Shown: positions 3,065-29,446 of the stretch, piece after piece
How the letters are laid out: every line of letters begins with the position of its first letter
Numbering within the stretch: the stretch's first letter is position 1
Assembly (NCBI GenBank): GCA_017554335.1
Contig: JAFZIO010000064.1
Coordinates: 1 to 39,355 of the forward strand
Length of the DNA stretch: 39,355 nucleotides
Direction of reading: 5' to 3'
DNA from: Bacteroidales bacterium
GTDB taxonomy: Bacteria; Bacteroidota; Bacteroidia; Bacteroidales; UBA932
The notes under the pieces: model-generated
Database searches by the model: none
What the model was told of the DNA's origin: nothing
Seen by the model: the letters and a program-made list of their open reading frames with translations, nothing else
Made by a program: the position numbers and the translations under genes

Positions 3065-3211
3065 TTAGTCCCATTCTTGCTCTGTACCATCAATGGAGTT
3101 GGCGGTACCATAACTGCTGCGGCTCGAGCGCACTCCGCTTTGGCAGATAATGCGCTCACTATTCACCTTAAGCACCATTGCCGAAGGTGCCTCATATACC
3201 TGTTTGTTCAT
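3065..3211 (-). CDS. Small Bacteroidales leader-type protein, 48 aa
   Basis: This open frame of 48 codons starts MNKQVYEAPSAMVL and ends GTEQEWD. Its stop lies 13 nt before the lipoprotein start at 3051, and a TACCTTTG promoter box sits at 3232-3239, so it is the first gene of the unit. It shares the spacing Y-x-x-P...(I/V)(I/L)C-x-S with the small genes at 6103-6249 and 10118-10240. RSSYGTA and GTEQ-x-WD near the C-terminus are common to this one and the 6103 copy. Similar short Y-x-x-P proteins occur widely in Bacteroidales and usually have no assigned function. There is no signal peptide or membrane segment. Confidence 0.75.
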   Translation of the reverse strand: MNKQVYEAPSAMVLKVNSERIICQSGVRSSRSSYGTANSIDGTEQEWD

Positions 3212-3231
3212 ATCTGATTTTTAGTAGCTCG

Positions 3232-3239
3232 CAAAGGTA
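3232..3239 (-). promoter_or_regulatory. Bacteroidetes-type -7 box
   Basis: TACCTTTG on the minus strand matches TAnnTTTG and lies 20 bp before the ATG of the small gene at 3211. It supports starting transcription upstream of the small gene rather than at the lipoprotein. Confidence 0.65.
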
Positions 3240-3495
3240 TTGATTTTCAGCGAAATCACAAAATGTAGCCAGAGGATAACGGTCATAATACGGCTATATC
3301 CGAGCTGATGAGAACAAATCCTCAAAAAAGTTTTGTCGAAGTTAAATTTTTTCATAGTTTTGCAATGCAGTCCCGGTAGTTCCTCTCCCAGACCTATGTG
3401 CTGGTGATGAATCCGGGTTTTTCTTTTTATAGGCTTCCTCTCTGACATGCCGCCAAAAGTGTGGACTCCTCGAGTGAAAAAATAATCAAAGCCTT
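3240..3495. other. Intergenic stretch with no gene seen
   Basis: An AT-richer intergenic region between the first promoter and the hairpin pair B. I see no convincing reading frame on either strand. Confidence 0.5.
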
Positions 3496-3527
3496 GCCCA
3501 AGGGTCCATTCCGAAGCACCCTTGAGC
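3496..3527. repeat. Hairpin repeat B1
   Basis: GCCCAAGGGT / ACCCTTGAGC with a 12-nt loop and one mismatch in the stem. The loop CCATTCCGAAGC is identical to that of the element at 6499-6530. On the minus strand a T-rich tract lies downstream of it. Confidence 0.75.
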
Positions 3528-3547
3528 ACGAAAAGGGCCAAAATTTT

Positions 3548-3579
3548 GCCCAAGGGTCCATCAGCAGGCACCCTTGGGC
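3548..3579 (-). terminator. Hairpin repeat B2, likely terminator of the second lipoprotein unit
   Basis: A perfect 10-bp stem, GCCCAAGGGT / ACCCTTGGGC, with loop CCATCAGCAGGC identical to element A2. It lies about 35 nt after the minus-strand stop at 3615 and is followed there by AAAATTTTGG. Confidence 0.6.
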
Positions 3580-3614
3580 AACAATCGTCGGGCTAATAAT
3601 CCAGTCATGATGGA

Positions 3615-6089
3615 TCAAAACACGAGGCCGGCTCGGACTTTATAGGTATTACTCTTAGGTTGGTAAGAGGTCCAATGGCCGGAGAAGCTAACAATATATG
3701 CTTGGTTGGAACTTTGCTCCAGACCAGTCCAGTAAGTACCCGTCTGTAAGCTATGATTGCTAATAATAGTACCGTAGTCCCCTATTTTAAACCACTGTTC
3801 TATGCTGGGCATCAGCCATAGTGCGCCGGTAACTGTCGGTGTCTTGCCGGAGCAAGTGGAAACTGCCGTAGACCAGTTCATTTCACCCTCATCTGCCAGA
3901 GCTATTGCCAGTCCATGGTTGTAAGTACTGCTATAAGAGCTCGAGCCATCAAGGCCATTCTCACTGCCCACATAGGCAATCTTAGCCACAGCGGTCTTCC
4001 CATCAGGCACAATACCGGCAGATTCATACGCATAGCCGTCACTGCAAACAATCCAGCCCCTGTGAGAGGAAGTGACATTTGATAACAATACTTGACGCAC
4101 ATAAGTGTAGGGGCTTTCGCTGATGGCGCCCGTCACACCACCGATGGTCACTGTGCCACAATTACTTCGACCAGAATAACTGATGCCGATGCTGTGTACG
4201 GCATTTTCGCCCTTCGTAGCTGTAACACGAGTCACGGTGTTCTCAATGGTAATATCACCGCAGTGGTAGTCAGAACCATAGCCAGCGCCAATGCCTGTCC
4301 TCCCAGATCCGCCCGTAGCAGTAACCGTGCCACCGCTGATGAGAATGTTGCCGCCATCAGCGCAATAGCCACTACCGATGCCCACACCCTTGTAACCACC
4401 ATTGGCCGTAACCGTGCCTCCGCTGATGGTGATGTCGCCGCAGGCGGAATTATAGCCACCGCCGATGCCTGCAGCCCCTTCTTGATTACCACTACCGCCC
4501 GTAGCCCTAACCGTACCGCCGCTGATGATGATAGCACCGCAATTACCACGATAGTAGCCACCGCCGATGCCTGCACTACCATTACCACCTGTGGCCGTAA
4601 CCGAGCCTCCGCTGATGGTGATGTCGCCGCAGGAACCATTACTGTGACCGTTACCGATGCCGGCACCTCCCTGATTACCACTTCCGCCTGTAGCTGTAAC
4701 TTCGCCTCCGTTGATGGTGATATCGCCGCAGGAGGGACTACCTCCAGTGTAGTAGGCACCGTTACCAATGCCCGCAGCATTCGAACCTCCATACGCCGCG
4801 ACCGTACCACCATTGATGGTGATGTCGCCGCAGGTGGGGCTGCCGGAGTTATTGACGCCACCAGCACCGATTCCCGCAGCACGAGTTCCGCCATTGGCCG
4901 TTATTTCGCCGCCGTTGATGATAATATTGCCGCAAGAGATATTGAAGCCGCCGCCGATACCGGCAGCATAGCCGTTGCTGCTGGCATTGAGCGTTCCCGT
5001 GCCCTGTATGGTGAGCGTATATTCCTCGCCCTCGCCAGAGCGTTTTGCAGCCTGAATGCCAGGGTAATTTTGATTGAATCCCTTAACGGTGTTCGTCGTT
5101 CCATCTGCCAAAACTATAGTAGCGTCGCCTAAGCAATTGATACCAGCATAATTGCCAGAATTCCAGGTGCCACTACCATTAATATTCGCCTCGCTCAGTG
5201 TAACCGTGGCACCGTCCGCGATAGAAATCTTGCGGTTGCTGCCAAGCGTGCCAGTCACAACGTCGTCATCAAACAACGTGATGTCCCTGTTAATGTTTGC
5301 CAGATTAACCAAGTCACGCTTCATCTTCACTGTAATCTCGTAGTACTTACCAGCGACAAGGTTTGCACCCGTCTTATTATAAGAATAAGTGATGCCTCCG
5401 ATAGTAGTGCTAAGGTTCACGGTGCTAGTGGCGGGGAGGGCTACGAAGAGCACATTAGTAGCAGAAGCCGGAGTGACGGTGTAGTCGTTGGCCGCGTCGT
5501 TCACGATCAGCTCCGTTGTCGCAGGGAGCTCAACGTCGGAACCGTCGACCTTCTGCTTCAGCGTGAACTTCACGATGGCCTGCTGGTTGGTGAAGGTAGC
5601 GTCGGAAGCGGTAATTCTGTTACCAGATACCGCAGTGACTGTAATCTCATCGGATTCGGCATAGTCGCAGTTGGCTGCGATGTATTCCAGAGTGCCGTTC
5701 TGATTGGCATAATCGGGGCTCAAGAACTTGAGAACCAGTTTGTCATTAGGTTCAACAGTTCCTGTGAGGTCGCCTTTCAGCGTGGTGGATTCGCCACTGC
5801 TCTGAGCTGCCAGATATCCTTCCAGGTCAGTCCCCTTTGTAACATTATGAACAGTTACTCTCTCCCCTTCTGCCCAGGTGGCATAAAGGGTTTTGTTGTT
5901 CACACCGCCAAGCGAGAGAGCCTTGGACGCCTCATCTCCGCCCTTGGTGGCCTCAACGGTCAGGGTATAAGTCTGGACGGTTTCCGGCTCCTCAATAACC
6001 TCCGGTTCCTCAACAATCTCCGGCTGCTCGATTTGCACACAGGCAGCCAAAGCGGCGGCCATCATGATAATTGCATAAAACTTCTTCAT
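3615..6089 (-). CDS. Surface lipoprotein: fimbrillin-like with eight glycine-rich beta-helix repeats
   Basis: 824 residues from the ATG at 6089, which has AGGAGG upstream. The longer frame overlaps the small gene at 6103-6249. The signal peptide, lipobox LAAC (Cys17) and Glu/Pro linker are nearly identical to the neighbour at 550-3051, and the fimbrillin-like domain is a clear paralogue. About 370-645 holds eight copies of (D/N/A)I(T/I)I(N/S)GG(T/E/S)V-TA-x-GG...AGIG-x-G, against five in its neighbour. The C-terminal ~165 residues (GLAIALADEG, ALWLMPSIEQW, TYWTGLEQ) form a different DUF1566-like module. Paralogue pairs sharing an N-terminus but differing in repeat number and tip fit a diversifying surface adhesin family; the ligand is unknown. 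Confidence 0.85.
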   Translation of the reverse strand: MKKFYAIIMMAAALAACVQIEQPEIVEEPEVIEEPETVQTYTLTVEATKGGDEASKALSLGGVNNKTLYATWAEGERVTVHNVTKGTDLEGYLAAQSSGESTTLKGDLTGTVEPNDKLVLKFLSPDYANQNGTLEYIAANCDYAESDEITVTAVSGNRITASDATFTNQQAIVKFTLKQKVDGSDVELPATTELIVNDAANDYTVTPASATNVLFVALPATSTVNLSTTIGGITYSYNKTGANLVAGKYYEITVKMKRDLVNLANINRDITLFDDDVVTGTLGSNRKISIADGATVTLSEANINGSGTWNSGNYAGINCLGDATIVLADGTTNTVKGFNQNYPGIQAAKRSGEGEEYTLTIQGTGTLNASSNGYAAGIGGGFNISCGNIIINGGEITANGGTRAAGIGAGGVNNSGSPTCGDITINGGTVAAYGGSNAAGIGNGAYYTGGSPSCGDITINGGEVTATGGSGNQGGAGIGNGHSNGSCGDITISGGSVTATGGNGSAGIGGGYYRGNCGAIIISGGTVRATGGSGNQEGAAGIGGGYNSACGDITISGGTVTANGGYKGVGIGSGYCADGGNILISGGTVTATGGSGRTGIGAGYGSDYHCGDITIENTVTRVTATKGENAVHSIGISYSGRSNCGTVTIGGVTGAISESPYTYVRQVLLSNVTSSHRGWIVCSDGYAYESAGIVPDGKTAVAKIAYVGSENGLDGSSSYSSTYNHGLAIALADEGEMNWSTAVSTCSGKTPTVTGALWLMPSIEQWFKIGDYGTIISNHSLQTGTYWTGLEQSSNQAYIVSFSGHWTSYQPKSNTYKVRAGLVF

Positions 6090-6102
6090 AACGCCGTCCT
6101 CC

Positions 6103-6249
6103 TTAGTCCCATACCTGCTCTGTGCCTTCAAGCTCGCTGGCTGTACCATAGCTGCTGCGGAATCCTCTTGTACCGGAATCACAGAGAACACCTTTTGTAT
6201 TGACCTCAACGACAATAATCGTCGGGGCCTCATATAAGTCACGATTCAT
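6103..6249 (-). CDS. Small Bacteroidales leader-type protein, 48 aa
   Basis: 48 codons starting MNRDLYEAPTIIVVEVN and ending GTEQVWD. It is a close paralogue of the small gene at 3065-3211: YEAP, the Cys in VLCDSG at the same spacing, RSSYGTAS, and an acidic/Trp tail. Its stop is 13 nt before the lipoprotein start at 6089, the same arrangement as in the paralogous unit. A TATATTTG promoter box lies upstream. Function unknown. Confidence 0.75.
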   Translation of the reverse strand: MNRDLYEAPTIIVVEVNTKGVLCDSGTRGFRSSYGTASELEGTEQVWD

Positions 6250-6280
6250 ATAAGATTAGATTAACCTGTTAATTCGGCCG

Positions 6281-6288
6281 CAAATATA
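6281..6288 (-). promoter_or_regulatory. Bacteroidetes-type -7 box
   Basis: TATATTTG on the minus strand, 31 bp before the small gene start at 6249. It matches TAnnTTTG exactly. Confidence 0.65.
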
Positions 6289-6306
6289 AGAAAAATAATT
6301 AGATAG

Positions 6307-6396
6307 AACACGCCCGTCGATGATCCTCGCCTCCAGGAGCTGGACTTACTTACCGCCTTGGTTGAGGAGTACGAGAAGGAACACTACCCTATTTAG
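6307..6396 (+). pseudogene. Fragment of a HigA-like (XRE) antitoxin gene
   Basis: 29 codons read NTPVDDPRLQELDLL...LVEEYEKEHYPI and then a stop. This matches the typical region just before the HTH in HigA-type antitoxins (ELD-L--LVE-YE--HYPI). The upstream part, the HTH region and any partner toxin are absent. I infer a decayed or transplanted toxin-antitoxin remnant. Confidence 0.6.
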
Positions 6397-6498
6397 CCCC
6401 CAATCTTTCGAACAGGCGCCTGTTATGTCGTTGACATTAATTCCAGCCTGCTCTGCGATAAGGTGTATTTTTTTCGGTATTAAATTGAGGACCAGCTT

Positions 6499-6530
6499 GC
6501 TCAAGGGTCCATTCCGAAGCACCCTTGAGC
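6499..6530 (-). terminator. Hairpin repeat C downstream of the third lipoprotein gene
   Basis: A perfect 10-bp stem, GCTCAAGGGT / ACCCTTGAGC, with loop CCATTCCGAAGC. It sits just beyond the stop at 6544. No clear T-run follows, so calling it a terminator rests on its position and its likeness to A2 and B2. Confidence 0.5.
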
Positions 6531-6543
6531 AGGGGTAGCGAGG

Positions 6544-8529
6544 TTAATTATGGTTGTAGCCGGAAGAAGGGTTGCCGGAGTAACTCCCACCGCTGCTGGT
6601 CCTAACGCTGCTATCTACAGTGACCCCATCGCGGTCATCAGTGAACTCGCCATCTTTTCCGAGGCCGATGTCATTAACTCCATTGGAGCCCTTGTTGGCC
6701 GTGACAGTACCGCTTTGCACATTGATACTGCCGCAATAACCCTTTTCTCCCGTTCCTATACCAGCTGCATTGGTACCGCCAGTGGCCGTAACAGTACCGC
6801 TTTGCACATTGATACTGCCGCAACCAGCATTTTCGCCGGTACCGATACCGGCTGCATTAGTACAGCCAGTAGCCGTAACGGTACCGCCAGAGATAGTGAT
6901 GTCCCAACAACGCGAGTCCATACCGCTGCCGATGCCAGCGCCATAATTGGACGAGGCGTTTACGATACCGCCTTCAATGATGATGTTGCCGCTAGAACTA
7001 CCATAACCGGTACCGATGCCCGCGCCGCTGCAAGGGGCGATGGCGAAAAGTTCGCCTGTACCAAGGTATCCGCCCCGGATGGTCAGCGTATAAGAATTAC
7101 TATAATATTCATATGCAGTCTCTATGCCGGCTGTTTTGATACCGAATCCCTGCACAGTGTTCGTCGTTCCGTCAATCAGATTGATGGTGGCGTCGCCCAA
7201 ACAAGTGATGCCTGCATGGTCAGTGTTAGTCCATGCGCCATCGGCATTTATGCTTACGCCGCCCAGCCATACAACTGCACCATCGACAATGCTGATCTTC
7301 ACCTCGTTGGCCAGCGTGCCGTAAAGGCAGTCATAAGTATGAGCCGAATAATTAGAGGTCATATTGGCCAGGTTGACATGCGTCAGCATCGTGTAGCTAG
7401 ACCCATATTGCATAGAGACAAAGATGCCGTCGGAGGCGGCAGAAGCCAGGAGCCCGGCGTTCTTACCATAATAATCACCGTTTTTGTCCTTAAACAAATA
7501 GAGCGTTCCGTCGGCTGCTTCAGTGACTGTGCTGCCATCCACATTAGCCCTTACCAATGTGTATGGGGCGTATCTATTTTCCAACGTTTCATTAACGTCA
7601 CCATTAATCAGGAAATATGATCCACTCAAGTCAAGTTGATCGCCCACATTGAGGTGGGTTCCTACCGGCAGCGTACTGTAGGTTTTAAACGACTCTGTCA
7701 TCCTCATGCCAAGCGGATAGAGATTGTTGGCGGCGTAGGTCTTGCCGGTCAGGGACTTGGTGTAGTGCTGTCCGTCCTCATCGGTGGCGGTCAGTTCGAT
7801 GCTGGCATCGGCTACGGGAATCATGGCCACGTAGATGGGGGCGTTTACTCCAGATGAGCGGTTGATAGTATACGTGTTGCTTCCGTCGCTGACGGTAAAT
7901 TCGGTGATGGTAGAGCTGATATCCTTCGAGCCGTCGTCATTCTTGATGGTGAAGGCGCAGACGGCCAGCTTGTTGGCTAGCGTGATATCGTCAGGCAACT
8001 GGTCGCCATTCATCGTACCGTCAAAGACTGCAAGGTCGAATTCTTTGCCCAACCTGCCCAGGAAACCGTCCTGCCCGTTTCTCAGGTAGTAATAGTCGAT
8101 AGTTTGTTCATCGTCGTCAATCGTTGCATCGTTTGCGATGTAATACTGAGCCATATTGGAGGGATAAATCAGTCGCAGCCGACCATTCTCGGCAGGGCTA
8201 TCCATCGTCACTCTAATAGAGGCCGACTTGCCATCGTCGCTGATGTCGCTGCCGGCGAGTTGAATGTCTACCGCCTTTGTCTGGCCACTTGTGTTCTTAT
8301 AGACAAAGGTTATCTGGTCGTCCTCGGCGAATGTCTTCACTCCCCCGGCAGTCAGCGCACGGGTTCCGACACCGCCTTCCAGACTGATGGTAGTCGTCAG
8401 CGTCACAGTCTTCGTTGCCTCTTCCGGCTGCGGTTCGTCCGGAATCTCTTCATTCAGGCAGCCGGTCATCATGGCGGCCATAACTGCGATGGCGGCCATG
8501 CTCAGGAATCTCATACTACTCTTCTTCAT
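6544..8529 (-). CDS. Surface lipoprotein: fimbrillin-like with four glycine-rich repeats and a short tail
   Basis: 661 residues from the ATG at 8529; an ATG two codons upstream at 8535 is equally possible. The signal peptide ends MMTGC and is followed by an acidic stretch (NEEIPDEPQPEE), as in exported surface lipoproteins. An N-terminal fimbrillin/Mfa-like domain follows, then a region containing TYDCLYGTLAN and GVSINADGAW that parallels its neighbours. Four repeats lie at about 500-630 (NIIIEGG, DITISGG, and SINVQSGTVTA twice). The protein ends in a Ser/Gly/Asn-rich tail with no FISUMP-like module, unlike the other two. It overlaps the upstream small gene and probably shares a transcript with the gene at 8704. 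Confidence 0.8.
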   Translation of the reverse strand: MKKSSMRFLSMAAIAVMAAMMTGCLNEEIPDEPQPEEATKTVTLTTTISLEGGVGTRALTAGGVKTFAEDDQITFVYKNTSGQTKAVDIQLAGSDISDDGKSASIRVTMDSPAENGRLRLIYPSNMAQYYIANDATIDDDEQTIDYYYLRNGQDGFLGRLGKEFDLAVFDGTMNGDQLPDDITLANKLAVCAFTIKNDDGSKDISSTITEFTVSDGSNTYTINRSSGVNAPIYVAMIPVADASIELTATDEDGQHYTKSLTGKTYAANNLYPLGMRMTESFKTYSTLPVGTHLNVGDQLDLSGSYFLINGDVNETLENRYAPYTLVRANVDGSTVTEAADGTLYLFKDKNGDYYGKNAGLLASAASDGIFVSMQYGSSYTMLTHVNLANMTSNYSAHTYDCLYGTLANEVKISIVDGAVVWLGGVSINADGAWTNTDHAGITCLGDATINLIDGTTNTVQGFGIKTAGIETAYEYYSNSYTLTIRGGYLGTGELFAIAPCSGAGIGTGYGSSSGNIIIEGGIVNASSNYGAGIGSGMDSRCWDITISGGTVTATGCTNAAGIGTGENAGCGSINVQSGTVTATGGTNAAGIGTGEKGYCGSINVQSGTVTANKGSNGVNDIGLGKDGEFTDDRDGVTVDSSVRTSSGGSYSGNPSSGYNHN

Positions 8530-8659
8530 AGTCATGTACCGTATAATCCTGCACGCCAGCCCTTCTGCTTGCCTGCATTAATTGTGATTGTTGCAGCAAC
8601 TTAACGACCTCCATCCGGGGGCGTTCGTACTCTTTCTTCGCTGTCATCTTTCTATTCAT
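8516..8659 (-). CDS. Small Bacteroidales leader-type protein, 47 aa
   Basis: 47 codons from the ATG at 8659, overlapping the start of the next lipoprotein gene by 14 nt. An in-frame ATG at 8695 would add 12 residues. It contains YERPRMEVVKLLQQSQLMQA and ends VQDYTVHDYEEE, the usual Y-x-x-P...LLQ-S...acidic-tail layout of these Bacteroidales small proteins. It lacks the Cys of its three relatives here. It lies close behind the lipoprotein stop at 8704 with no clear promoter box between, so I infer co-transcription. Confidence 0.7.
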   Translation of the reverse strand: MNRKMTAKKEYERPRMEVVKLLQQSQLMQASRRAGVQDYTVHDYEEE

Positions 8660-20279: not shown

Positions 20280-20837
20280 TTACGGATGGCGGCAAATGGT
20301 ATATACATAGGCTCCGGACGGAGCGACAACAGTTTCTGAACAAACGCCCCTGACTATTGGAAAATGATCTGTGAGCCCCTCTCCTGTATATTTCAGAAAT
20401 GCTTCTTTCTGAGTCCACAGGCGAGCAAAGGAAAGGGTGGGAGAAGGAGACGCCAGAATAAAGTTCTGCTCTTCTTCGGAAAAAACATGACGGCATACAT
20501 CCAGGTCCAGGACAGAAGGAACGCCTTCCACATCGCATCCTACCGGAGCATCACCGACCACGCACAGAGCAACGCCGGGGCAATGGCTCAGGTTGAAATG
20601 GATTTGCGGATAATCTTTAAGGAATGGTTTGCCATGAGGGCCGAAGCCGAACGTCAGGTCTCCTGTGACACCATACTCTTTCTCCAGCGCCTCCTGAAGC
20701 AACAGATAAACGGCCAGGGACAACCGGCGGTCGCTGTCTTTGACATAGCGCAGGGCCAGCTCCCGCCGCTGCGGGCTCACCCGCTCCAGCGCCCGGCCAA
20801 TGCTAAGGTCCTCTGTATGGTCGTTCAGATAAATCAT
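20280..20837 (-). CDS. Sfp-type 4'-phosphopantetheinyl transferase
   Basis: 185 residues from the ATG at 20837. The open frame extends to 20876, but that overlaps the promoter box. GPHGKPFL, IHFNLSHC, VGCDVEG (Mg-binding Asp/Glu), FSEEE and LWTQKEAFLKYTGEGL are the ordered motifs of the Sfp/Gsp family. It transfers the phosphopantetheine arm from CoA to the Ser of carrier domains. It is divergent from the NRPS at 20926, whose two T domains are the obvious substrates. Confidence 0.92.
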   Translation of the reverse strand: MIYLNDHTEDLSIGRALERVSPQRRELALRYVKDSDRRLSLAVYLLLQEALEKEYGVTGDLTFGFGPHGKPFLKDYPQIHFNLSHCPGVALCVVGDAPVGCDVEGVPSVLDLDVCRHVFSEEEQNFILASPSPTLSFARLWTQKEAFLKYTGEGLTDHFPIVRGVCSETVVAPSGAYVYTICRHP

Positions 20838-20873
20838 TCCTCTCACAATTTCACATAATAATTGCCGCCCTTG

Positions 20874-20881
20874 CAAATATA
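20874..20881 (-). promoter_or_regulatory. -7 box for the phosphopantetheinyl transferase
   Basis: TATATTTG on the minus strand, 36 bp before the ATG at 20837 and 12 bp from the divergent NRPS box. Confidence 0.65.
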
Positions 20882-20925: not shown

Positions 20926-23900
20926 ATGATAACACCGCTATCCCAGAGCCAATTGGGCGTGTATTATGCCTGTGTAACCAATAAGGACGAAAACACCAAT
21001 TACCAGAATCCTGTTCTGTTTGACCTTCCTCAAGATGTTGCGGTAGAAGCGGTGCGGAAGGCTGTCTACGACGCTTTATGCGCCCATCCTTATCTGGCAT
21101 CCCGTATTGTTCTGGACGACGAAGGTGTCCCCGCAGTGGAAAGCGGGACTTTCCCTGCCCTGGAAGAAGCAGTGCCGGTGATCCCTGTAAAATGCCTGGA
21201 TGACGTGAAGTCCGGATTCGGCAAAACCATGGATGTCCATGCGGAAAAACTGTACCGCTCAGAAATCTATCAAGCCCAGGACCGCGCCTGGCTGTACATC
21301 GACTTTCATCACGTCATCTCCGACGGTTTCTCCATGGTGCTCTTCCTGCGGGAGCTGGAGCGCGCCTTCAACGGAAAAAAGCCTGCGGGGGAAATGCTGG
21401 ACGGAGGCGCCATCGCCACGGAAGAAGAAGCCTTGAGGGCCGATGAAAACAAGATGGCCGAGGCTCGTGAGTGGTATTCCAAAACTTTCTGCGATGCCGC
21501 CGAAACCGATTCCCTGCCCCTGCCGCAATGTGATTTGGGAGACGTTCAAGCCGAGATTTGCTACAAGCATTATCCGCTCTCCGTCTCCAAGGAAGAGGTG
21601 AATGCTGCCATGCGCAAATGGGACGTAAAGGAAAGCACCCTCATGCAGGCTGCCTGGGGCCTGCTCCTCGCCGCCTACGGCGCCGAGGACAAAGCCTCCT
21701 GGTGCACCGCATTCTTCGGCCGAAGTGACCGCCGCAGCCTTTCCACCATCACCATGATGGTACATACGCTTCCCGTATTCCTGCAGGCCAAGGGTGAAGA
21801 AACGCTCGGCGAAGTTTTTTCCGCCCTTTCCGTACAGATGGACAAGGCACAGCAACTTCAATACTACGCCTATCAAGATGCCGTGAAGGACCTTGGGCTC
21901 ATGGACCAGGTCATGTTTGTGTATCAGGGCTCCGTCCTCGCCGGCAAACGCGGCCTGCGCTTCGGAGAAAACATGGTGCCTTACCACGACCTCCGGCAAC
22001 TCACTCCGGGGTGGAAACTGGTGGCCGAGCTCTTTGAAGACGGGGATGGCTATTCCCTCAAACTGGGCTACAGCACGGCCGATTACGCTGATTCATTCAT
22101 GCAGGAACTGGCGAAGAGCTACAGTGCCCTCATTGCATCCATGGTGCATGCAGAGACCGTAAAAGACCTGGAATACGCCATGCCGGAGCAGGTGAAGTTG
22201 CTGAACGCCCTGAATCCTGAAATCAAGCCGGCCAAACTTCCCTCCCTGGTGGAACGCTTCAAGCAGCACGTGGCAGAACGCCCCAACGATATCTTTGTGG
22301 TAGCCGGAGACAAACGCCTCACCTTTGCACAGGTAGACAAACTCACAGATACAATAGACCCGTCCTACACCGTCCGCTGCGGAGACCGGGTGGTGGGCTT
22401 TTCCGTTCCCCGCGACGAAAAAATGGTTCTGGCGCCCCTTGCCATTGCCAAGGCTGGCCTCACCCAGCTGCCGCTGGACGCCAGCTATCCGGAAGAAAGG
22501 CTGGAGTTCATGAAGAAAGACGCATCGGACTATAACGGGAAGGATGCCCTGGTGTTGCTGTACACGAGCGGTACCACCGGCACGCCCAAGGGTGTGATTC
22601 TCACAGAGGACAACTTCCGGCAGTTCGCCCATTTCCATACTGCCCATATCGGCCTGGGAAAGGGTTCCCGCTATGCTTCCTACGCCGGCTACGGTTTTGA
22701 TGCCTATCAGCACGACCTTTGGGCCTGCGTCTGGGCCGGCGCACAGATCCATATCATACAAGACGACATCCGCTTCGACCTGGAGGGAATCAACAGCTAT
22801 CTGCAAAAGGAGGGCATCACCCACATCTTCATGACCACCCAGATGGCCACGCAGATGGCGCTCAATTATCCCGACGTCCCCGGACTGCAATGGCTGGGGA
22901 CCGGCGGAGAGAAGCTCCTGAGCCTGGATCCGCCGGCATATAGGCTCCTTAATGCTTACGGTCCCACGGAATGCACGGTATATGTGTGCAGCCATTATGT
23001 AGATAAGAACGAGCCCAACATCCCCATCGGCAAACCAAACGACATAGCGGAGCTGTTTATTGTGAACCGCTTTGGCAAGCAGGTACCCTGGGGCTGCAAC
23101 GGGGAACTGATCATCGCCGGGCCGCAGGTTGGAGTGGGTTACCTCAACCTCCCGGAAAAGACGGCTGCAGCATTTGTAGAGTGGAACGGCAAGCGCGTGT
23201 ACCGCACCGGTGACGTGGTTCGCTACCGTGTGAACGGTGACATTGAATTTGTAGGCCGAAAGGACGGTCAGGTAAAGATCCGCGGTTTCCGTATCGAGCT
23301 CAAGGAAGTGGAAGGAGTTATACGCCAGTACCCCGGAATCAAGGACTGCACGGTTCAGGCCTTCGAATATCCCACCGGCGGCAAATACATCGCCGCCTAT
23401 GTGGTTGCCGATGAAAAAGTGGACGTCAAGGCTCTCAACGCCTTCATAATGGACCAGAAGCCGCCGTACATGGTACCGGCAGCCACCATGCAGCTGGACG
23501 CCATTCCGCTTAACCAGAACCAGAAGGTGAACAAGCGGGCCTTGCCGGAGCCGGTGATTGGCGCCGGCGTGGAAGAAGAGGATACCCAGGCCGCCCCGCT
23601 CAACATCCTGGAACAACAGCTCAAGGACATGGTGGCGGCAGTGGTGAATACGGACGCCTTCGGCCTTACCACAGATTTAAGGATGGCCGGCCTCACCTCG
23701 ATTCTGGCCATCAAACTTGCCACACAGGTTTTCAAACGCTACGGTGTGCAGCTGGATTCCCAGGTCCTCACCAATGGTGCAAGCATACAAAGTATTGAGA
23801 ATGAGATCCTTCGTCACTTCATGACCCAGGATGACAAAGGCGTGACTCAGGATGGTTGTCATTCTGAGCGCAGCGAAGAATCTTCTTCCGGGCCCGCTCC

Positions 23901-26900
23901 GCTGTCATACTCCCAAACGGGCGTGTACTTTGAGTGCATGAAGGACCCGGCATCCACCATCTACAATATTCCCATGCTCCTGACGCTCCCGGAAGGAACG
24001 GACGCAACAGCCCTGCAGGACGCTGTCAAAAAGGCAGCCCTCAACCATCCGGAACTCTTTGTGCAGTTCACCAATGACGAAAACGGCGTGGTTCAGGTAA
24101 TGGGCAAAAAGGCCGTTGAGGTGCCTGTAACCCATATGAGCGAAAAGGAGATGGAGGAGTTCCGCCATGGCTTCGTCCGGCCCTTCAACCTGAGCAAGGA
24201 CATACTGTTCCGCTTTGAGATTGTCCAGACGGAAAAAGCGCTTTACCTCTATTGCGACATCCACCACCTGGTCTGCGACGGCTATTCCTACGATGTCCTC
24301 ATCCACGAAATCTGCGACCTGATGGACGGAAAGGAAATAGAGCCGGAGATGTGCACCTACGCCCAGTTTGTGGCAGAGCAGCATGCGGCAGAATCCGGAG
24401 AAGAATTTGCCCGGGCCGCCGATTTCTTCAAGCAGCGTCTTGGAGAGGTGGAAAACGTCACGGAGATCGCCCCGGACCTGGTGAACCCCAAGCCTCAAGG
24501 AGAAAACGGCCGCACCTGTGCCCCCATCCATTGGGCCGACGCCGAGAGTTTGGCCAAGAGCCTGGGTGTGAACCCCTCCGCCGTACTGCTGAGTGCCGTA
24601 TTCTATGCCCTTTCCCGCTTCAGCGGAAGCGACGACGTTTGCATCACTACCATCTCCAATGGCCGAAGCAATCTGAAGGTGGCCGGCACCATGGGTATGT
24701 TTGTGAATACGCTGGCGCTTGCCTCCAAAATCGGCAGCCAGAGTGTGCAGGAGTTCATCCGTGAAAGCGCCGATACCTTTACACAGACGCTCTCTCACGA
24801 GAATTATCCCTTTGCCAAGATAGCCGCCGACTATGGACTGAAGGCCGATATCATGTTTGCCTACCAGGTGGGCGTTCTCAGCGATTACCGTATGGGAGGT
24901 AAGGAAGTGGTTGCCGACGGAACTTCCCTGGAACTGAACGTTCCCAAGTTTAAGATGGCCTTCTATATCATGGAGGTGGAGGGCGTACCCAGTGTGGCCC
25001 TCGAATACCACAACGGGCAGTACAGCCCGGCCCTGATGCAAAGCCTGGCGCATAGCGTGAGCAATGCCGTAAGCGCGTTTGCCAGGAATGCCGATGCTCC
25101 GCTGCGCAGCGTTTCCCTCATGGACGACGCCGGCATCGGAGTGCTGGACTCCTTCAACCAGACCGATGTGGCTTACGATGCCTCTGAGACCATCGTCTCC
25201 CTGTTCCGTAAGCAAGCCGCACAAACGCCTGACAATCTGGCCGTTGTATATCACGACGTCCGCCTTAGCTACAAAGAGGTGGACGAACGCACCGATGCCA
25301 TTGCGGCAAAGATTCAGTCTGTCATTCTGAGCGGCAGCGAAGAATCTGTGGTTTCCGTCCTCGTCGGCCGCTGCGAGTGGATGGTCCTTGCCTCCCTGGG
25401 TGTCCTCAAGGCCGGCTGCGCCTACCAGCCGCTGGATCCCAGCTATCCGTCCGAGCGCCTGAACTATATGATGGAAGATGCGTCGGCGGGCCTCCTTATC
25501 GCCCAGGAAGAGCTGCTGGAGAAAGTGGATTTCAAGGGCCCCGTACTGCTGACCAAGGAGCTGGGAGATGCCCGGTCGGTGCCGGGCATGACGTCATTGC
25601 CGGCCTTGACCGGCAATCTGCCAAAACCGGAGGATTTGTTCATCCTCCTGTACACTTCCGGCTCTACCGGCAAACCCAAGGGTTGCCAGCTGGAGCACCG
25701 CAACCTGGTGGCCTTCTGCAACTGGTACAGGCGCTATTATGACTTAAAGCCTGGCGACAAGGTGGCGGCATACGCCTCCTACGGCTTCGACGCCTGCATG
25801 ATGGATCTGTATCCGGCCCTCACCACGGGTGCGGCCGTATATATCATCGGCGATGACATCCGCCTTAATCTGCCGGACCTGAACGATTACTTCAACCAGG
25901 AAGGCATCACCCATTCGTTCATGACCACCCAGGTGGGCTGTCAGTTTGCCATCAACTGTGACAATCATTCCCTCAGGCATCTGAGCGTGGGCGGCGAGAA
26001 GGTGCTGCCCCTGGATCCGCCCAAAAACTACCGGATGCACAACGGTTACGGCCCCACGGAGTGCACCATCTTTACCACCACCTATCCCATGACGGAGTTC
26101 CAGCAGAACGCCCCTATCGGCAAACCCCTGGACAACCTCAAACTCTTCATTGTGGACAAGGACATGAACCGCCTGCCGATCGGCGCCGTGGGAGAGATGC
26201 TTGTAAGCGGCCCTCAGGTAAGCCGCGGCTACCTGAACCTCCCGGAGAAGACCGCCGAGACCTACATCCAGTGGAACGGACTCAGATGCTATCGCACCGG
26301 AGACGTGGTGCGTTACCTGGAAGACGGGAACGTTCAGTTTGTGGGCCGGCAGGACGGTCAGGTGAAGATTCGCGGCTTCCGCATAGAGCTTAAGGAAGTG
26401 GAAGCCGTGATCCGCGAGTATCCCGGAATCAAGGACGCCACCGTCCAGGCCTTCGACTATCCTAATGGCGGCAAGTTCATTGCTGCATACATCGTCAGCG
26501 ACTCCCAGGTGGACGTGCAGGCTTTGAACGCATTCATCAAAGAGCGGAAGCCTTCTTATATGGTCCCTGCCGCCACCATGCAGCTGGACGCCATTCCGCT
26601 GAACCAGAACCAGAAGGTGAACCGCAGAGCCCTTCCCGCCCCGCAGATTCAGGCCGAAAGCCGGGACTACGTAGCTCCCGCCAATGACCTGGAGAAGCTG
26701 TACGCCGATATCTTCGCCGGCATCCTGTCTATGGACAAGGTGGGCGCAACGGACAACTTCTTCGAGCTGGGCGGCACCTCCCTGATGGTGACCAAGGTGG
26801 TCATCGAGTCGGACAAGGCCGGTCACCACATTGCATACGGCGATGTCTTCGACCATCCTACGCCGCGCCTGCTTGCCCAGTTTGCCGGAGGATCTGCCCC

Positions 26901-28101
26901 GGTGGACAACACGGACACGGAGGTGGAAAACTTTGACTACTCCGGCATCAACGCCATCCTGCAGCACAACAACGTAGACATGTTCATGAAGGGCGAACGC
27001 CAATCTTTGGGCGACGTGCTGCTCACCGGCGCCACAGGCTATCTGGGCATTCACGTGCTGCGTGAGCTCATCGACTCCGACGCTGCTACCATCACCTGCC
27101 TGGTTCGCGGTAAGAATCTGCCCGCTGCCGAGCACAGGCTTAAGAATCTGCTGTTCTACTACTTTGAGACCTCGTTCGCACCGCTGTTCGGCACTCGAAT
27201 CTTCGTGGTTAACGGAGACGTCACATCGGATCTGGAGCCGGGACGCCATATAGACACCGTCTTCAATTGCGCCGCCAATGTGAAGCACTTCTCCAAAGGC
27301 ACCGACATTGAGGATGTCAATATAGGCGGAGCCCGCCGATGCATGGAGTTCTGCCTGCATACCGGCGCCCGTCTGGTACACATTTCCACCACATCGGTCG
27401 GCGAGGTATGGGTAGACCGCGGAGACGGCATGGAAGTGCCCAAGCTGGATGAGCGTAAGCTTTACTTCGGCCAGTACCTGAATAACCGTTACATGCATTC
27501 CAAGTTCCTGGCCGAGAGGCTTATCCTTGACGCCGTGGCGCATCACGGCCTCAGCGCCAAGATTATGCGCGTAGGCAATCTGGCGCCCCGTTACTCTGAC
27601 GGTGATTTCCAGGCCAACTTCAACTCCAACAGCTATATGGGCCGGCTCAAGGTATTCCATACGCTGGGCTGCTGCCCCTACGAAGGCTACGACGAGCTCA
27701 CGGAGATGTCCCCCATTGACGAAACCGCCAAAGCCGTTGTCTTGTTGGCTTCCACTCCCAAGGAATGCACAGTGTTCCAACCTTTCAACAATCACACCCA
27801 GCTGCTGGGAGACGTGCTTCTGCTCATGGAAAAGCTAGGCTCTCCCATGCGCTTCGTGGAGATGTCCGAATTCCAGCAGGCCATCGCCATAGCCAGCCAG
27901 GATCCCCATAAGGCAGGACTGCTGTCGGCTATGCTGGCATACGAAGACCTTGCCCACGGACAAAAGGCGCTGAACATTGAACGCGACAACCGCTATACCT
28001 GCTCTGTACTGCATAGGCTGGGTTTCCACTGGAGCGACACCTCCAGCGAGTATATCCTGCAGATGCTACGGCAGATTGCAGCATTCGGTTATTTTGAATA
28101 G
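20926..28101 (+). CDS. Dimodular nonribosomal peptide synthetase, C-A-T-C-A-T-R
   Basis: 2391 residues. C1 has HHVISDG near 128. A1 has LLYTSGTTGTPKG (~545), NAYGPTE (~676) and KIRGFRIELKE (~784). T1 has GLTSI (Ser925). C2 has HHLVCDG (~1113). A2 has LLYTSGSTGKPKG (~1576), NGYGPTE (~1706) and KIRGFRIELKE (~1814). T2 is FFELGGTSL (Ser1952). The terminal thioester reductase has TGATGYLG (~2034) and the Y2189-x3-K2193 catalytic pair. Reductase-ended two-module NRPSs release dipeptide aldehydes, which can cyclise to (dihydro)pyrazinones; the starter C domain suggests N-acylation of residue 1. By hand I read the specificity residues as D-A-H-F-L-T-A-V-Y-K (A1) and D-A-M-F-L-V-G-I-F-K (A2), which look mainly hydrophobic but match no code I know. 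A1 is short between motifs A2 and A3. Confidence 0.93.
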   Translation: MITPLSQSQLGVYYACVTNKDENTNYQNPVLFDLPQDVAVEAVRKAVYDALCAHPYLASRIVLDDEGVPAVESGTFPALEEAVPVIPVKCLDDVKSGFGKTMDVHAEKLYRSEIYQAQDRAWLYIDFHHVISDGFSMVLFLRELERAFNGKKPAGEMLDGGAIATEEEALRADENKMAEAREWYSKTFCDAAETDSLPLPQCDLGDVQAEICYKHYPLSVSKEEVNAAMRKWDVKESTLMQAAWGLLLAAYGAEDKASWCTAFFGRSDRRSLSTITMMVHTLPVFLQAKGEETLGEVFSALSVQMDKAQQLQYYAYQDAVKDLGLMDQVMFVYQGSVLAGKRGLRFGENMVPYHDLRQLTPGWKLVAELFEDGDGYSLKLGYSTADYADSFMQELAKSYSALIASMVHAETVKDLEYAMPEQVKLLNALNPEIKPAKLPSLVERFKQHVAERPNDIFVVAGDKRLTFAQVDKLTDTIDPSYTVRCGDRVVGFSVPRDEKMVLAPLAIAKAGLTQLPLDASYPEERLEFMKKDASDYNGKDALVLLYTSGTTGTPKGVILTEDNFRQFAHFHTAHIGLGKGSRYASYAGYGFDAYQHDLWACVWAGAQIHIIQDDIRFDLEGINSYLQKEGITHIFMTTQMATQMALNYPDVPGLQWLGTGGEKLLSLDPPAYRLLNAYGPTECTVYVCSHYVDKNEPNIPIGKPNDIAELFIVNRFGKQVPWGCNGELIIAGPQVGVGYLNLPEKTAAAFVEWNGKRVYRTGDVVRYRVNGDIEFVGRKDGQVKIRGFRIELKEVEGVIRQYPGIKDCTVQAFEYPTGGKYIAAYVVADEKVDVKALNAFIMDQKPPYMVPAATMQLDAIPLNQNQKVNKRALPEPVIGAGVEEEDTQAAPLNILEQQLKDMVAAVVNTDAFGLTTDLRMAGLTSILAIKLATQVFKRYGVQLDSQVLTNGASIQSIENEILRHFMTQDDKGVTQDGCHSERSEESSSGPAPLSYSQTGVYFECMKDPASTIYNIPMLLTLPEGTDATALQDAVKKAALNHPELFVQFTNDENGVVQVMGKKAVEVPVTHMSEKEMEEFRHGFVRPFNLSKDILFRFEIVQTEKALYLYCDIHHLVCDGYSYDVLIHEICDLMDGKEIEPEMCTYAQFVAEQHAAESGEEFARAADFFKQRLGEVENVTEIAPDLVNPKPQGENGRTCAPIHWADAESLAKSLGVNPSAVLLSAVFYALSRFSGSDDVCITTISNGRSNLKVAGTMGMFVNTLALASKIGSQSVQEFIRESADTFTQTLSHENYPFAKIAADYGLKADIMFAYQVGVLSDYRMGGKEVVADGTSLELNVPKFKMAFYIMEVEGVPSVALEYHNGQYSPALMQSLAHSVSNAVSAFARNADAPLRSVSLMDDAGIGVLDSFNQTDVAYDASETIVSLFRKQAAQTPDNLAVVYHDVRLSYKEVDERTDAIAAKIQSVILSGSEESVVSVLVGRCEWMVLASLGVLKAGCAYQPLDPSYPSERLNYMMEDASAGLLIAQEELLEKVDFKGPVLLTKELGDARSVPGMTSLPALTGNLPKPEDLFILLYTSGSTGKPKGCQLEHRNLVAFCNWYRRYYDLKPGDKVAAYASYGFDACMMDLYPALTTGAAVYIIGDDIRLNLPDLNDYFNQEGITHSFMTTQVGCQFAINCDNHSLRHLSVGGEKVLPLDPPKNYRMHNGYGPTECTIFTTTYPMTEFQQNAPIGKPLDNLKLFIVDKDMNRLPIGAVGEMLVSGPQVSRGYLNLPEKTAETYIQWNGLRCYRTGDVVRYLEDGNVQFVGRQDGQVKIRGFRIELKEVEAVIREYPGIKDATVQAFDYPNGGKFIAAYIVSDSQVDVQALNAFIKERKPSYMVPAATMQLDAIPLNQNQKVNRRALPAPQIQAESRDYVAPANDLEKLYADIFAGILSMDKVGATDNFFELGGTSLMVTKVVIESDKAGHHIAYGDVFDHPTPRLLAQFAGGSAPVDNTDTEVENFDYSGINAILQHNNVDMFMKGERQSLGDVLLTGATGYLGIHVLRELIDSDAATITCLVRGKNLPAAEHRLKNLLFYYFETSFAPLFGTRIFVVNGDVTSDLEPGRHIDTVFNCAANVKHFSKGTDIEDVNIGGARRCMEFCLHTGARLVHISTTSVGEVWVDRGDGMEVPKLDERKLYFGQYLNNRYMHSKFLAERLILDAVAHHGLSAKIMRVGNLAPRYSDGDFQANFNSNSYMGRLKVFHTLGCCPYEGYDELTEMSPIDETAKAVVLLASTPKECTVFQPFNNHTQLLGDVLLLMEKLGSPMRFVEMSEFQQAIAIASQDPHKAGLLSAMLAYEDLAHGQKALNIERDNRYTCSVLHRLGFHWSDTSSEYILQMLRQIAAFGYFE
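23857..23885. repeat. REP-like repeat inside the NRPS gene, copy 1
   Basis: TTGTCATTCTGAGCGCAGCG followed by AAGAATCTT matches a dispersed repeat found in many bacteria. Here it is translated as CHSERSEES, in the linker between T1 and C2 (residue ~978). The preceding 40 bases (coding MTQDDKGVTQDG) have the same repeat-derived look. Confidence 0.75.
25319..25347. repeat. REP-like repeat inside the NRPS gene, copy 2
   Basis: CTGTCATTCTGAGCGGCAGC followed by GAAGAATCT carries one G more than copy 1. It is translated as SVILSGSEES, in the N-terminal part of A2 (residue ~1467). The extra base puts SEES back in the NRPS frame. Confidence 0.75.
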
Positions 28102-28106
28102 GCAGT

Positions 28107-29129
28107 ATGAAAAGAAAGAGTTGGATGTCCCGCATGGGAATTGTGGTAATTGCCGCTATCATGGTGGAGGCTATTTCCATTGTGCAGTATGAGCGCATCA
28201 ACCGCATTATGGTTGAGGAGGGGCAGGTGGTACAGGAAAACGAAGCTAACGAGTTCCATGCCCGCATACAAACGGTACGCCGGCACCAGGTGGGCTTAGT
28301 CCTGCTGGGTCTGGCCGCTCTTGCCTTTATGATCCGGCGTTACGCCCTTAGCGAACAGAAGCTCAGGGAGGCCGATGAAGAAAACGCCCGGATCGGCGCA
28401 GAACTCAAGGTGGCCTACGACATCCAGCAGAGCATGCTGCCGCCCCGGCAATTTCAACAGGATGAGGTGGAGATTTTCGCTTCGCTGGTTCCTGCCCGGG
28501 AGGTGGGAGGAGACCTTTTCGACTACTATGTCCGCGACGGCAAGTTGTTTTTCTGTATCGGCGACGTGAGCGGCAAGGGCGTTCCTTCGGCCATGCTCAT
28601 GTCGGTGGCTCATTCCATCTTCCGGATGGTTTCCCAAAGAATAAACAGCCCGGCCGAAATCCTGCAGGTGATGAACGAAGAGCTGTGCCGGGGAAATGAG
28701 AACAACATGTTCCTCACCTTCTTCATAGGCTGCCTGGACCTGTATTCCGGTGAACTCACCTTTGCCAATGCCGGCCATAACAAACCGTTCCTGATTTCCG
28801 GGGAAGTAAGCCAATTGGACACCAAGGCAAACTTGCCGCTGGGCGTTTTTCCCGAAACCCGTTTTCAGCAGCAGACCTGCACCCTTTCGCAGGGAACTAC
28901 GCTTGTTCTTTATACCGACGGCCTTACCGAGGCCAAGAACAGTGACAGGAAACAGTTTGGGACAGGTCGGGTGAAAGAAGTCCTTGAAAACTGCCAGAGG
29001 GGCGACGACTTCTCTCCCGAAACGCTTGTAACCGCCCTCACGGAGGCGGTGCACGGTTTCGCTGGCAGTGAAGCCCAGAGTGACGATCTTACCCTCATGG
29101 TCATCAATTATGCTCCAAAATTAAATTAA
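28107..29129 (+). CDS. Membrane SpoIIE/RsbU-type PP2C phosphatase
   Basis: 340 residues, starting 5 nt after the NRPS stop. Two hydrophobic helices (about 8-26 and 62-80) enclose a short extracytoplasmic loop. A coiled-coil-like linker (LSEQKLREADEENARIGAELK) leads to the phosphatase: LVPAREVGGDLFDYY, IGDVSGKGVPSAMLM, FANAGHNKPFLI, LVLYTDGLTEA and SDDLTLMV, all expected for SpoIIE/RsbU Mn-dependent Ser phosphatases. These dephosphorylate STAS antagonists; one is encoded 14 nt downstream. The small extracytoplasmic loop might sense a signal. Confidence 0.9.
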   Translation: MKRKSWMSRMGIVVIAAIMVEAISIVQYERINRIMVEEGQVVQENEANEFHARIQTVRRHQVGLVLLGLAALAFMIRRYALSEQKLREADEENARIGAELKVAYDIQQSMLPPRQFQQDEVEIFASLVPAREVGGDLFDYYVRDGKLFFCIGDVSGKGVPSAMLMSVAHSIFRMVSQRINSPAEILQVMNEELCRGNENNMFLTFFIGCLDLYSGELTFANAGHNKPFLISGEVSQLDTKANLPLGVFPETRFQQQTCTLSQGTTLVLYTDGLTEAKNSDRKQFGTGRVKEVLENCQRGDDFSPETLVTALTEAVHGFAGSEAQSDDLTLMVINYAPKLN

Positions 29130-29143
29130 AAAGTTATAAAGCA

Positions 29144-29446
29144 ATGATTACAAAAATAAAAGAACTTGACGGCAAATACGTTGCCTCGCTGGAAGGAGAA
29201 ATGGATACCGCTGCCGCAGTGGAGGCCGAAGAAATTTTGAAGCCGCTATACAATGCAGGCGGTAAGGATGTCATCATTGACTGCAGCTCCCTGGAGTATA
29301 TCTCTTCCAGTGGCATGCGTATCCTGCTGAGCATCCTGAAGGGAGCAAAAGCAGCTGGAAGCAAGGTCGTGCTGCGCGGCGTCAACGAAGACATTAAGAG
29401 TATCTTCGCACTGACCGGTTTTATTGATATTTTCGAGTTCGAATAA
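29144..29446 (+). CDS. STAS-domain anti-sigma-factor antagonist (SpoIIAA-like)
   Basis: 100 residues. The fold pattern ITKIKELDGKYVASLEGEMD, then VIIDCSSLEYISSSGMRILL, then VVLRGVNEDIKSIFALTGF is that of single-domain STAS antagonists. The phosphorylatable Ser lies in ISSSGM; the usual Asp before the SSG is replaced by Ser. It forms a phosphatase/target pair with the preceding gene. No RsbW-type kinase or sigma factor is nearby, so the partner must be elsewhere. Its 3' end overlaps the convergent patatin gene by 26 nt. Confidence 0.88.
   Translation: MITKIKELDGKYVASLEGEMDTAAAVEAEEILKPLYNAGGKDVIIDCSSLEYISSSGMRILLSILKGAKAAGSKVVLRGVNEDIKSIFALTGFIDIFEFE

What the first reader, a model, noticed from the sequence alone, without database searches (positions are those of the whole stretch)
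20926..29446. NRPS operon ends with a SpoIIE/RsbU phosphatase and a STAS antagonist
The phosphatase starts 5 nt after the NRPS stop and the antagonist 14 nt later. Partner-switching modules usually control a sigma factor or a target enzyme, yet no kinase or sigma gene is present. Either the peptide product feeds into a stress regulatory switch, or the switch controls activity or export of the product. I know of no described NRPS system with this arrangement, although I could not search.
Basis: partly seen in the sequence, partly recalled or inferred. Interest (0 to 1): 0.75.

Follow-up and report, generated by a model that had tools for sequence, protein, structure and literature searches.

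The report
Signalling switch wired to peptide factory
In many gut and rumen Bacteroidales, genes for a small on/off protein switch (a phosphatase, a kinase and a switch protein) sit beside the gene for an enzyme that probably assembles a short peptide aldehyde, so the switch probably controls that pathway; the copy in this window has lost the sensor and the kinase.

Summary
In detail: a 2391-aa NRPS (C-A-T-C-A-T-R), a SpoIIE/PP2C phosphatase and a STAS protein follow each other with 5- and 14-nt spacers. The trio is not unique. Of 116 distinct loci selected only by the NRPS reductase domain, 79 have SpoIIE and STAS within 4.5 kb of the NRPS (61 of the 72 with at least 3.5 kb visible on both sides), in four gene orders with at least 5 order changes on the NRPS tree. 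Of 40 regions selected by SpoIIE, 8 of the 12 best and 0 of the 28 others adjoin an NRPS. The missing kinase is explained: in 67 of the 79 it is a HATPase domain fused to SpoIIE, mostly behind a sensor region. The window has a shortened form without sensor and kinase; the only RsbW-type domain found in its genome is on another contig. No SigB/F/G-type sigma factor passes the model cut-off in any of 21 genomes. Best reading: a SiaABC-like partner switch whose output is the NRPS pathway; direct action of STAS on the NRPS is untested. Literature searches found no such case; the nearest is TciR in Vogesella.

The parts
20926..28101 (+). NRPS, 2391 aa, C-A-T-C-A-T-R; the reductase domain suggests release as a dipeptide aldehyde (AusA-like)
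   Evidence: Pfam; best NCBIfam model aureusimine NRPS AusA, 966 bits, below its 2500 cut-off; R domain 80-83% identical to five orthologues
27022..27735 (+). Thioester-reductase (NAD_binding_4) domain core of the NRPS
   Evidence: residues 2033-2270; PDB matches 6vtj E 5e-72 and AusA reductase 4f6c E 8e-29
28107..29129 (+). SpoIIE/RsbU/SiaA-like PP2C phosphatase, 340 aa: predicted membrane hairpin, long helix, phosphatase; reduced form without the Cache sensor region and without the HATPase kinase
   Evidence: Pfam, alignment with 12 relatives, hydrophobic segments, AlphaFold2 mean pLDDT 84.7
28536..29108 (+). PP2C catalytic domain; the Asp motifs (GGD, GDVSGKG, YTDG, SDD) are all kept
   Evidence: coordinates; invariant columns (the role of the motifs is recalled)
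29144..29446 (+). STAS-domain protein (anti-sigma-factor-antagonist superfamily), 100 aa, with Ser55 in the phospho-acceptor position (position recalled from RsbV)
   Evidence: PF01740; TIGR00377 over cut-off; Ser55 in 124 of 124 aligned STAS rows, window included
20280..20876 (-). 4'-phosphopantetheinyl transferase, divergent from the NRPS, probably activates its T domains; the true start may be further in
   Evidence: PF01648; best NCBIfam model AusB, 63 bits, below its cut-off of 225; also divergent in L041, L049, L050, L080, L102

Best explanation
The trio is a reduced copy of a widespread locus in gut/rumen Bacteroidales in which a partner-switching cassette is dedicated to one peptide-aldehyde pathway. 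In the complete form one membrane protein carries a periplasmic Cache-type sensor, a PP2C phosphatase (RsbU/SiaA role) and a HATPase serine kinase (RsbW/SiaB role); these set the phosphorylation of a 100-aa STAS protein (RsbV/SiaC role) on Ser55. The free STAS protein then acts on the pathway of the neighbouring AusA-like NRPS, most likely on the enzyme itself or else on its expression, and not through a SigB-type sigma factor. In the window's genome the sensor and kinase parts were lost; either STAS is kept dephosphorylated and the pathway is always on, or the kinase of the cassette on contig C66 works in trans. Shown: gene structure, conserved association, domain losses, conserved catalytic and phospho-acceptor residues. 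Inferred: phosphorylation, direction of control, target, product.
For: SpoIIE and STAS within 4.5 kb of the NRPS in 79 of 116 distinct reductase-selected loci, and in 61 of 72 with both flanks visible. Four gene orders, with fewest 5 order changes on the reductase tree (all 5 forced by starred branches for the upstream order; 78 labelled rows) and 9 on the SpoIIE tree (81 linked rows), so adjacency outlived rearrangements. NRPS next door in 8 of the 12 best SpoIIE-selected regions and 0 of 28 lower ones. SpoIIE and reductase distances correlate (Mantel r 0.49, largest of 1000 permutations 0.12, n = 74; not corrected for species phylogeny). HATPase fused in 67, separate in 3, absent in 9 of 79; all 7 genomes tested that have a HATPase-less NRPS-linked SpoIIE (6 of those 9 loci and L051) have a HATPase_c_2 over cut-off elsewhere, three of them within a few kb on the NRPS contig. 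In G091 the SpoIIE cassette part (L048) is unlinked but the NRPS still has a STAS gene beside it; in L196 and L197 STAS directly precedes the NRPS while SpoIIE faces it from the other end. SigBFG: 0 of 21 genomes over cut-off. Best NCBIfam model for the phosphatase is SiaA, whose pathway regulates an enzyme, SiaD (PMC9239204, passages). Cassettes without NRPS often have other fixed neighbours, a RelA/SpoT-domain protein (13 of 33) and a Na/H exchanger (10 of 33), as expected of a plug-in with a local effector.
Against: Of 72 fully visible NRPS loci, 8 have no such gene nearby (in six of them under 4.5 kb upstream was seen) and 3 have part of it. G248 keeps SpoIIE at the NRPS, but its nearest STAS relative (61%) lies on another contig. 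SpoIIE cassettes of the related clade also occur without an NRPS in the region fetched (L044, L046, L047, and L048 without STAS). All 21 genomes do have SigBFG-model matches below the cut-off, so a sigma target is not excluded. The C66 SpoIIE groups with an NRPS-linked one (L195, SH-aLRT 97), so linked and unlinked cassettes are not cleanly separate families. No interaction, phosphorylation or expression was tested. Loss of sensor and kinase in the window could mean decay.
Confidence: 0.6

Rival explanations
1. The cassette is the receiver, not the controller: the Cache domain (with a neighbouring porin) senses the NRPS product or its precursor amino acids outside the cell, and STAS passes this to unrelated targets (autoinducer-like feedback).
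For: The two full-length forms scanned have a PDC/Cache match (PF22673 over cut-off, dCache_1 below it). A porin-like protein lies in 24 of 160 mapped regions, also beside related cassettes without an NRPS (L044, L046-L048); porin and NRPS co-occur: 51 of 76 genomes with the NRPS against 23 of 324 without. G289, G215 and G091 have cassette and NRPS on different contigs.
Against: The window's copy has no sensor yet keeps the trio. The porin family is wide, the co-occurrence is not corrected for phylogeny, and 17 of 20 regions fetched around porins show no SpoIIE. STAS stays beside the NRPS in G091, L196 and L197.
Confidence: 0.2
2. The cassette controls transcription of the NRPS operon through an unrecognised regulator or an ECF sigma factor (a special form of the best explanation, so the odds overlap).
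For: Classical partner switches act on sigma factors (PMC11418112, passages). Every one of 21 genomes has SigBFG-model matches below the cut-off: one near-full-length sigma factor in most, and ECF-sized proteins.
Against: No SigBFG over cut-off in 21 of 21 genomes. Among the neighbour families in at least 4 of 80 loci, none of those scanned is a regulator; a 1074-aa family and a 125-aa minus-strand family were not scanned and ORFs under 90 aa were not called.
Confidence: 0.25
3. General stress cassette that sits beside the NRPS by hitch-hiking, without a functional link.
For: SpoIIE genes of this kind are common in these genomes (144 of 299 family genomes have a match), and cassettes occur away from NRPS genes.
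Against: Adjacency in 61 of 72 visible loci through four orders; linked SpoIIEs are clustered on the tree (fewest changes 6 for the unlinked label against a shuffled mean of 29.7, though linked and unlinked rows come from different selections).
Confidence: 0.07
4. In the window only: the phosphatase-STAS pair is a decaying remnant after loss of sensor and kinase (can be true together with the best explanation for the relatives).
For: The window protein lacks about 220-230 residues of Cache region and about 135 of HATPase; its end branch is about twice the median (0.45 against 0.21).
Against: Reading frames, Asp motifs and Ser55 are intact, the deletions are in frame, and HATPase-less forms recur (9 of 79). 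Loss of the Cache as well was seen only here among the proteins aligned.
Confidence: 0.2

Closest known systems
SiaABCD of Pseudomonas aeruginosa
   Same: PP2C phosphatase (SiaA), kinase (SiaB) and STAS-type protein (SiaC) that regulate an enzyme (SiaD) and not a sigma factor (PMC9239204, passages); SiaA is the best NCBIfam model for the window phosphatase
   Different: 61.7 bits against the SiaA cut-off of 700; kinase fused to the phosphatase in relatives and absent here; the neighbouring enzyme is an NRPS, not a c-di-GMP enzyme
RsbU-RsbV-RsbW / SpoIIE-SpoIIAA-SpoIIAB of Bacillus
   Same: Phosphatase, STAS antagonist and (in relatives) HATPase kinase domains
   Different: No SigB/F/G-type sigma factor over cut-off; sensor on the phosphatase; linked NRPS
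Rv1364c-type proteins (best solved-structure match 3ke6, E 8.6e-13; architecture recalled)
   Same: Sensor, PP2C phosphatase and RsbW-like kinase in one polypeptide
   Different: There the STAS domain is also fused (recalled); no NRPS
SypE/SypA of Vibrio fischeri (passages of PMC12826045)
   Same: Kinase and PP2C phosphatase in one protein control a STAS protein without a known sigma target
   Different: SypE has a receiver domain; output is biofilm
TciK/TciR of Vogesella indigofera (abstract and passages of PMC12826045)
   Same: RsbW-like domain genetically linked to production of an NRPS compound, indigoidine
   Different: Receiver-RsbW protein, no RsbV homologue, not a SpoIIE-STAS cassette
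AusA/AusB aureusimine system and gut dipeptide-aldehyde synthetases (passages of PMC8210680)
   Same: Dimodular NRPS with terminal reductase, and a PPTase; AusA and AusB are the best NCBIfam models
   Different: Extra N-terminal condensation domain in the window's type; regulatory cassette; scores below both cut-offs

Membership tests
Partner-switching system (RsbU/V/W or SiaA/B/C type) | PP2C/SpoIIE phosphatase with metal-binding Asp motifs | tested here: met
   Pfam PF07228 E 1.5e-51; invariant columns
Partner-switching system (RsbU/V/W or SiaA/B/C type) | STAS protein with a phosphorylatable Ser | tested here: met
   TIGR00377 over cut-off; Ser55 in 124 of 124 rows; phosphorylation itself not tested
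Partner-switching system (RsbU/V/W or SiaA/B/C type) | HATPase serine kinase in the same locus | tested here: not met
   Absent in the window; the only HATPase_c_2 found in the genome is on C66. In relatives: fused in 67 and separate in 3 of 79. The window is therefore not filed as a complete partner switch
SigB/SigF-type sigma control | Cognate SigBFG sigma factor | tested here: not met
   0 of 21 genomes over cut-off, 21 of 21 with matches below it; of 14 control genomes 10 ring and 1 is over the cut-off
SiaA | NCBIfam NF038263 over its cut-off | tested here: not met
   61.7 bits against 700
AusA aureusimine synthetase | NCBIfam NF047350 over its cut-off | tested here: not met
   966 bits against 2500; extra N-terminal C domain
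Reductase-terminated dimodular NRPS | Two modules and a terminal thioester reductase | tested here: met
   the product is not testable here

The most novel reading that the evidence does not exclude
The STAS protein binds the NRPS directly and gates the assembly line: a phosphorylation-switched NRPS controlled by a membrane sensor through a plug-in cassette that in sister loci is attached to other effectors (RelA/SpoT-domain protein, Na/H exchanger).
Probability: 0.3. Interest if true: 0.88.

Novelty: new variant of a known kind. Interest (0 to 1): 0.72.

Why it matters
If right, a class of gut and rumen peptide-aldehyde synthetases comes with its own sensor and switch, so the condition that turns them on becomes a direct question (what binds the Cache domain), and post-translational on/off control of an NRPS by a STAS protein would be new to me. 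It also suggests that SpoIIE-HATPase-STAS cassettes in Bacteroidales are a plug-in whose effector can be read from the neighbouring gene.

Tried and rejected
A cognate kinase gene near the trio: none in the window; explained by loss of a domain that is fused in relatives. SigB-type sigma target: none over cut-off, though all 21 genomes have weaker matches. A porin-like neighbour as a fixed fourth part: it recurs (24 of 160 mapped regions) and co-occurs with the NRPS (51 of 76 against 23 of 324), but the family is wide, its copy in this genome (C49) has no NRPS or cassette match in the 16 kb fetched, and 17 of 20 porin regions show no SpoIIE, so I did not make it a part. SNF-family transporter, SDH_alpha-family and arginine-deiminase-family neighbours occur in some loci only. 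A-domain codes: the string DAM(T/F)SGGIF was the commonest, 93 of 247 extracted A stretches, window included, and is that of the last A domain in the window and its orthologues; so the aldehyde residue is probably constant there, but I could not assign the amino acid. Position 278 is uncertain and the 247 hold double matches and near-copies. Fold comparison of the AlphaFold2 model could not be run. Literature: six searches aimed at this link and four wider or other ones. None lists a SpoIIE-STAS cassette with an NRPS; one search listed one Paenibacillus review and one plant-microbiome review, both seen in the listing only. Most subscription papers are not held.

SpoIIE-selected loci (L040-L079) were not used in that count; the 12/28 split of those 40 follows their SpoIIE rank but was set after seeing the maps. 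In one search, 13 of 128 SpoIIE rows were dropped as near-copies. In some searches two loci (L149, L150) were dropped for a short reductase match; the Mantel test used the 74 rows with a full SpoIIE domain.

Full report
What is there. The window holds, on the + strand, an NRPS of 2391 aa (20926-28101; C-A-T-C-A-T-R), a SpoIIE phosphatase of 340 aa (28107-29129) and a STAS protein of 100 aa (29144-29446). The spacers are 5 and 14 nt. A phosphopantetheinyl transferase lies divergently upstream (20280-20876, -). The next gene, a patatin-like protein, is on the other strand and overlaps the end of STAS. The curated model that best fits the NRPS is the aureusimine synthetase AusA, that for the PPTase is AusB, that for the phosphatase is SiaA, and STAS passes the anti-sigma-factor-antagonist superfamily model; the first three are below their cut-offs. 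The reductase domain matches the solved structures 6vtj and AusA reductase. The best solved match of the phosphatase is 3ke6, Rv1364c.

The phosphatase is a shortened protein. Its eleven best relatives (49-61% identical) are about 700 aa: first membrane helix, a Cache/PDC-type region, second membrane helix, SpoIIE, then an RsbW-like HATPase_c_2 domain (Pfam on two of the full-length proteins, where PF22673 passes and dCache_1 stays below its cut-off). The window's protein keeps both hydrophobic helices and the phosphatase; some 220-230 residues of the Cache region and all of the HATPase (about 135 residues) are missing in frame. AlphaFold2 gives two N-terminal helices, the second running on as a long helix, and an alpha/beta domain where Pfam places SpoIIE (mean pLDDT 84.7); a fold search could not be run. 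The Asp motifs are kept. In the reductase tree the window groups with L080 and L082 (SH-aLRT 96); L080 has the complete 701-aa protein, L082 a 571-aa form without HATPase, so reduction is seen in more than one neighbour.

The trio is conserved. I selected loci by the reductase domain alone: the best 80 of 511 in a named genome collection and 40 of 85 matches from 400 genomes of the same genus (76 of 400 genomes have a match at E <= 1e-100). After removing 4 copies, 116 remain, the window not counted: 79 have SpoIIE and STAS within 4.5 kb of the NRPS. Of 72 with at least 3.5 kb visible on both sides, 61 have both, 3 have part and 8 none; of the 44 cut ones 18 have both, 5 part and 21 none. Orders among the 79: SpoIIE upstream on the same strand 50, divergent 14, downstream as in the window 12, facing the NRPS end with STAS upstream 2, cassettes on both sides 1. 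Without the loci that lack a cassette, the reductase tree needs at least 5 changes of order (78 rows), the SpoIIE tree at least 9 (81 rows); the 8 loci without a cassette are scattered over the reductase tree (8 changes), which looks like repeated loss. Where SpoIIE was used for selection, 8 of the 12 best regions have an NRPS next door and 0 of the 28 others. Record titles put the named loci in Bacteroidales or the wider Bacteroidia/Bacteroidetes, many with ruminant-gut sources, and name Prevotellaceae, Bacteroidaceae and Paludibacteraceae. The parts can also separate: in G091 the NRPS has a STAS gene at its end while the cassette's SpoIIE lies elsewhere, and G248 has SpoIIE at the NRPS and its nearest STAS relative on another contig.

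Where the kinase is. Among the 79, HATPase is fused to SpoIIE in 67, a separate ORF in 3, absent in 9, one of these with SpoIIE cut by the contig end; a sensor-region match is present in 62 of the 67 fused and 9 of the other 12. Seven genomes with a HATPase-less linked SpoIIE were searched (6 of the 9 loci, and L051); all seven have a HATPase_c_2 over cut-off elsewhere, as has the window's genome (C66). The C66 cassette (sensor-SpoIIE-HATPase plus STAS) shares an APH-like neighbour with other unlinked cassettes, but its SpoIIE domain groups with the NRPS-linked L195 (SH-aLRT 97), so I do not call it a separate family. Unlinked cassettes often have fixed neighbours of their own: among 33 loci, a RelA/SpoT-domain protein in 13, an HD-domain protein in 9, a Na/H exchanger in 10 and an APH-like kinase in 14 (Pfam run on one representative each).

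How it probably works. Sensor input sets the balance between phosphatase and kinase, which sets the phosphorylation of STAS Ser55 (present in 124 of 124 STAS rows); free STAS then acts on a partner. No SigB/F/G sigma factor passes the cut-off (0 of 21 genomes; all have weaker matches). The neighbour that stays through the rearrangements is the NRPS, and by comparison with SiaABCD, in which the switch regulates an enzyme (PMC9239204, passages; that they share an operon is recalled), the NRPS or its expression is the most likely output. This step is inference. The product is probably an aldehyde of two amino acids, as for AusA (PMC8210680, passages); the residue chosen by the last module seems constant in the window's group. 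In the window's genome, without kinase and sensor, the pathway may be permanently on or be reset by the C66 kinase.

What is new. The parts are known kinds. I found no printed account of a SpoIIE-STAS cassette as the standing companion of an NRPS. A survey of rumen clusters with 5,346 NRPS clusters, 934 of them in Bacteroidaceae, does not hold the word SpoIIE in its main text (PMC8241843, passages). The closest precedent is TciR, a receiver-RsbW protein that affects indigoidine production in Vogesella (PMC12826045, abstract and passages). I therefore rate it a new variant of a known kind.

Limits. Most loci are from metagenome-assembled genomes; contig and flank ends hide part of many loci. 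The two losses in the window rest on the assembly. The Mantel correlation and the porin co-occurrence are not corrected for species phylogeny. The trees are quick trees with SH-aLRT only and with long branches flagged. Genes were called as longest open frames, so small neighbours may be missed.

Noticed in passing
L053:9933-15572 and similar loci among L052-L079; L009 (own contig C66) for the APH-like kinase: SpoIIE-HATPase-STAS cassettes without NRPS often sit beside a RelA/SpoT-domain protein (13 of 33 loci), an HD-domain protein (9), a Na/H exchanger (10; it starts at the STAS stop in L053) and an APH-like kinase (14): possibly other effectors of the same kind of switch.
   Followed up: partly
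window 23858-23881 (inside the NRPS gene): A repeat of the type GTCATTCTGAGCGAAGCGAAGAAT lies in frame between NRPS domains and encodes part of the peptide CHSERSEES; 8 copies with up to 2 mismatches in this genome, 0 in the backward control. A similar-looking peptide (LSGSEES, near residue 1475) was not matched by the DNA pattern.
   Followed up: partly
window 26893-28098: The reductase domain is much closer to PDB 6vtj (E 5e-72; from a rumen methanogen, as I recall) than to AusA (E 8e-29), hinting at exchange of such NRPSs within the rumen community.
   Followed up: no
L084:2654-4003, L048:7772-9094, own genome C49:6344-7597: Porin-like protein family (Alginate_exp match below cut-off in L048) near NRPS-type cassettes; co-occurs with the NRPS in 51 of 76 against 23 of 324 genomes.
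   Followed up: partly
L083:447-1775, L089:543-1829, L128:11243-12556: Neighbours of the NRPS cassette in some loci: Na+:neurotransmitter-symporter-family transporter, SDH_alpha-family enzyme, arginine-deiminase-family enzyme; all fit amino-acid handling.
   Followed up: partly
L208, L226, L227: A three-module version (C-A-T-C-A-T-C-A-T-R, about 3470 aa) has an upstream SpoIIE-STAS pair from a distant SpoIIE clade without HATPase.
   Followed up: no
window 550-8535 (-): Three consecutive large proteins (869, 875 and 663 aa) with beta-helix repeats (the third below the Pfam cut-off), probably surface proteins.
   Followed up: no
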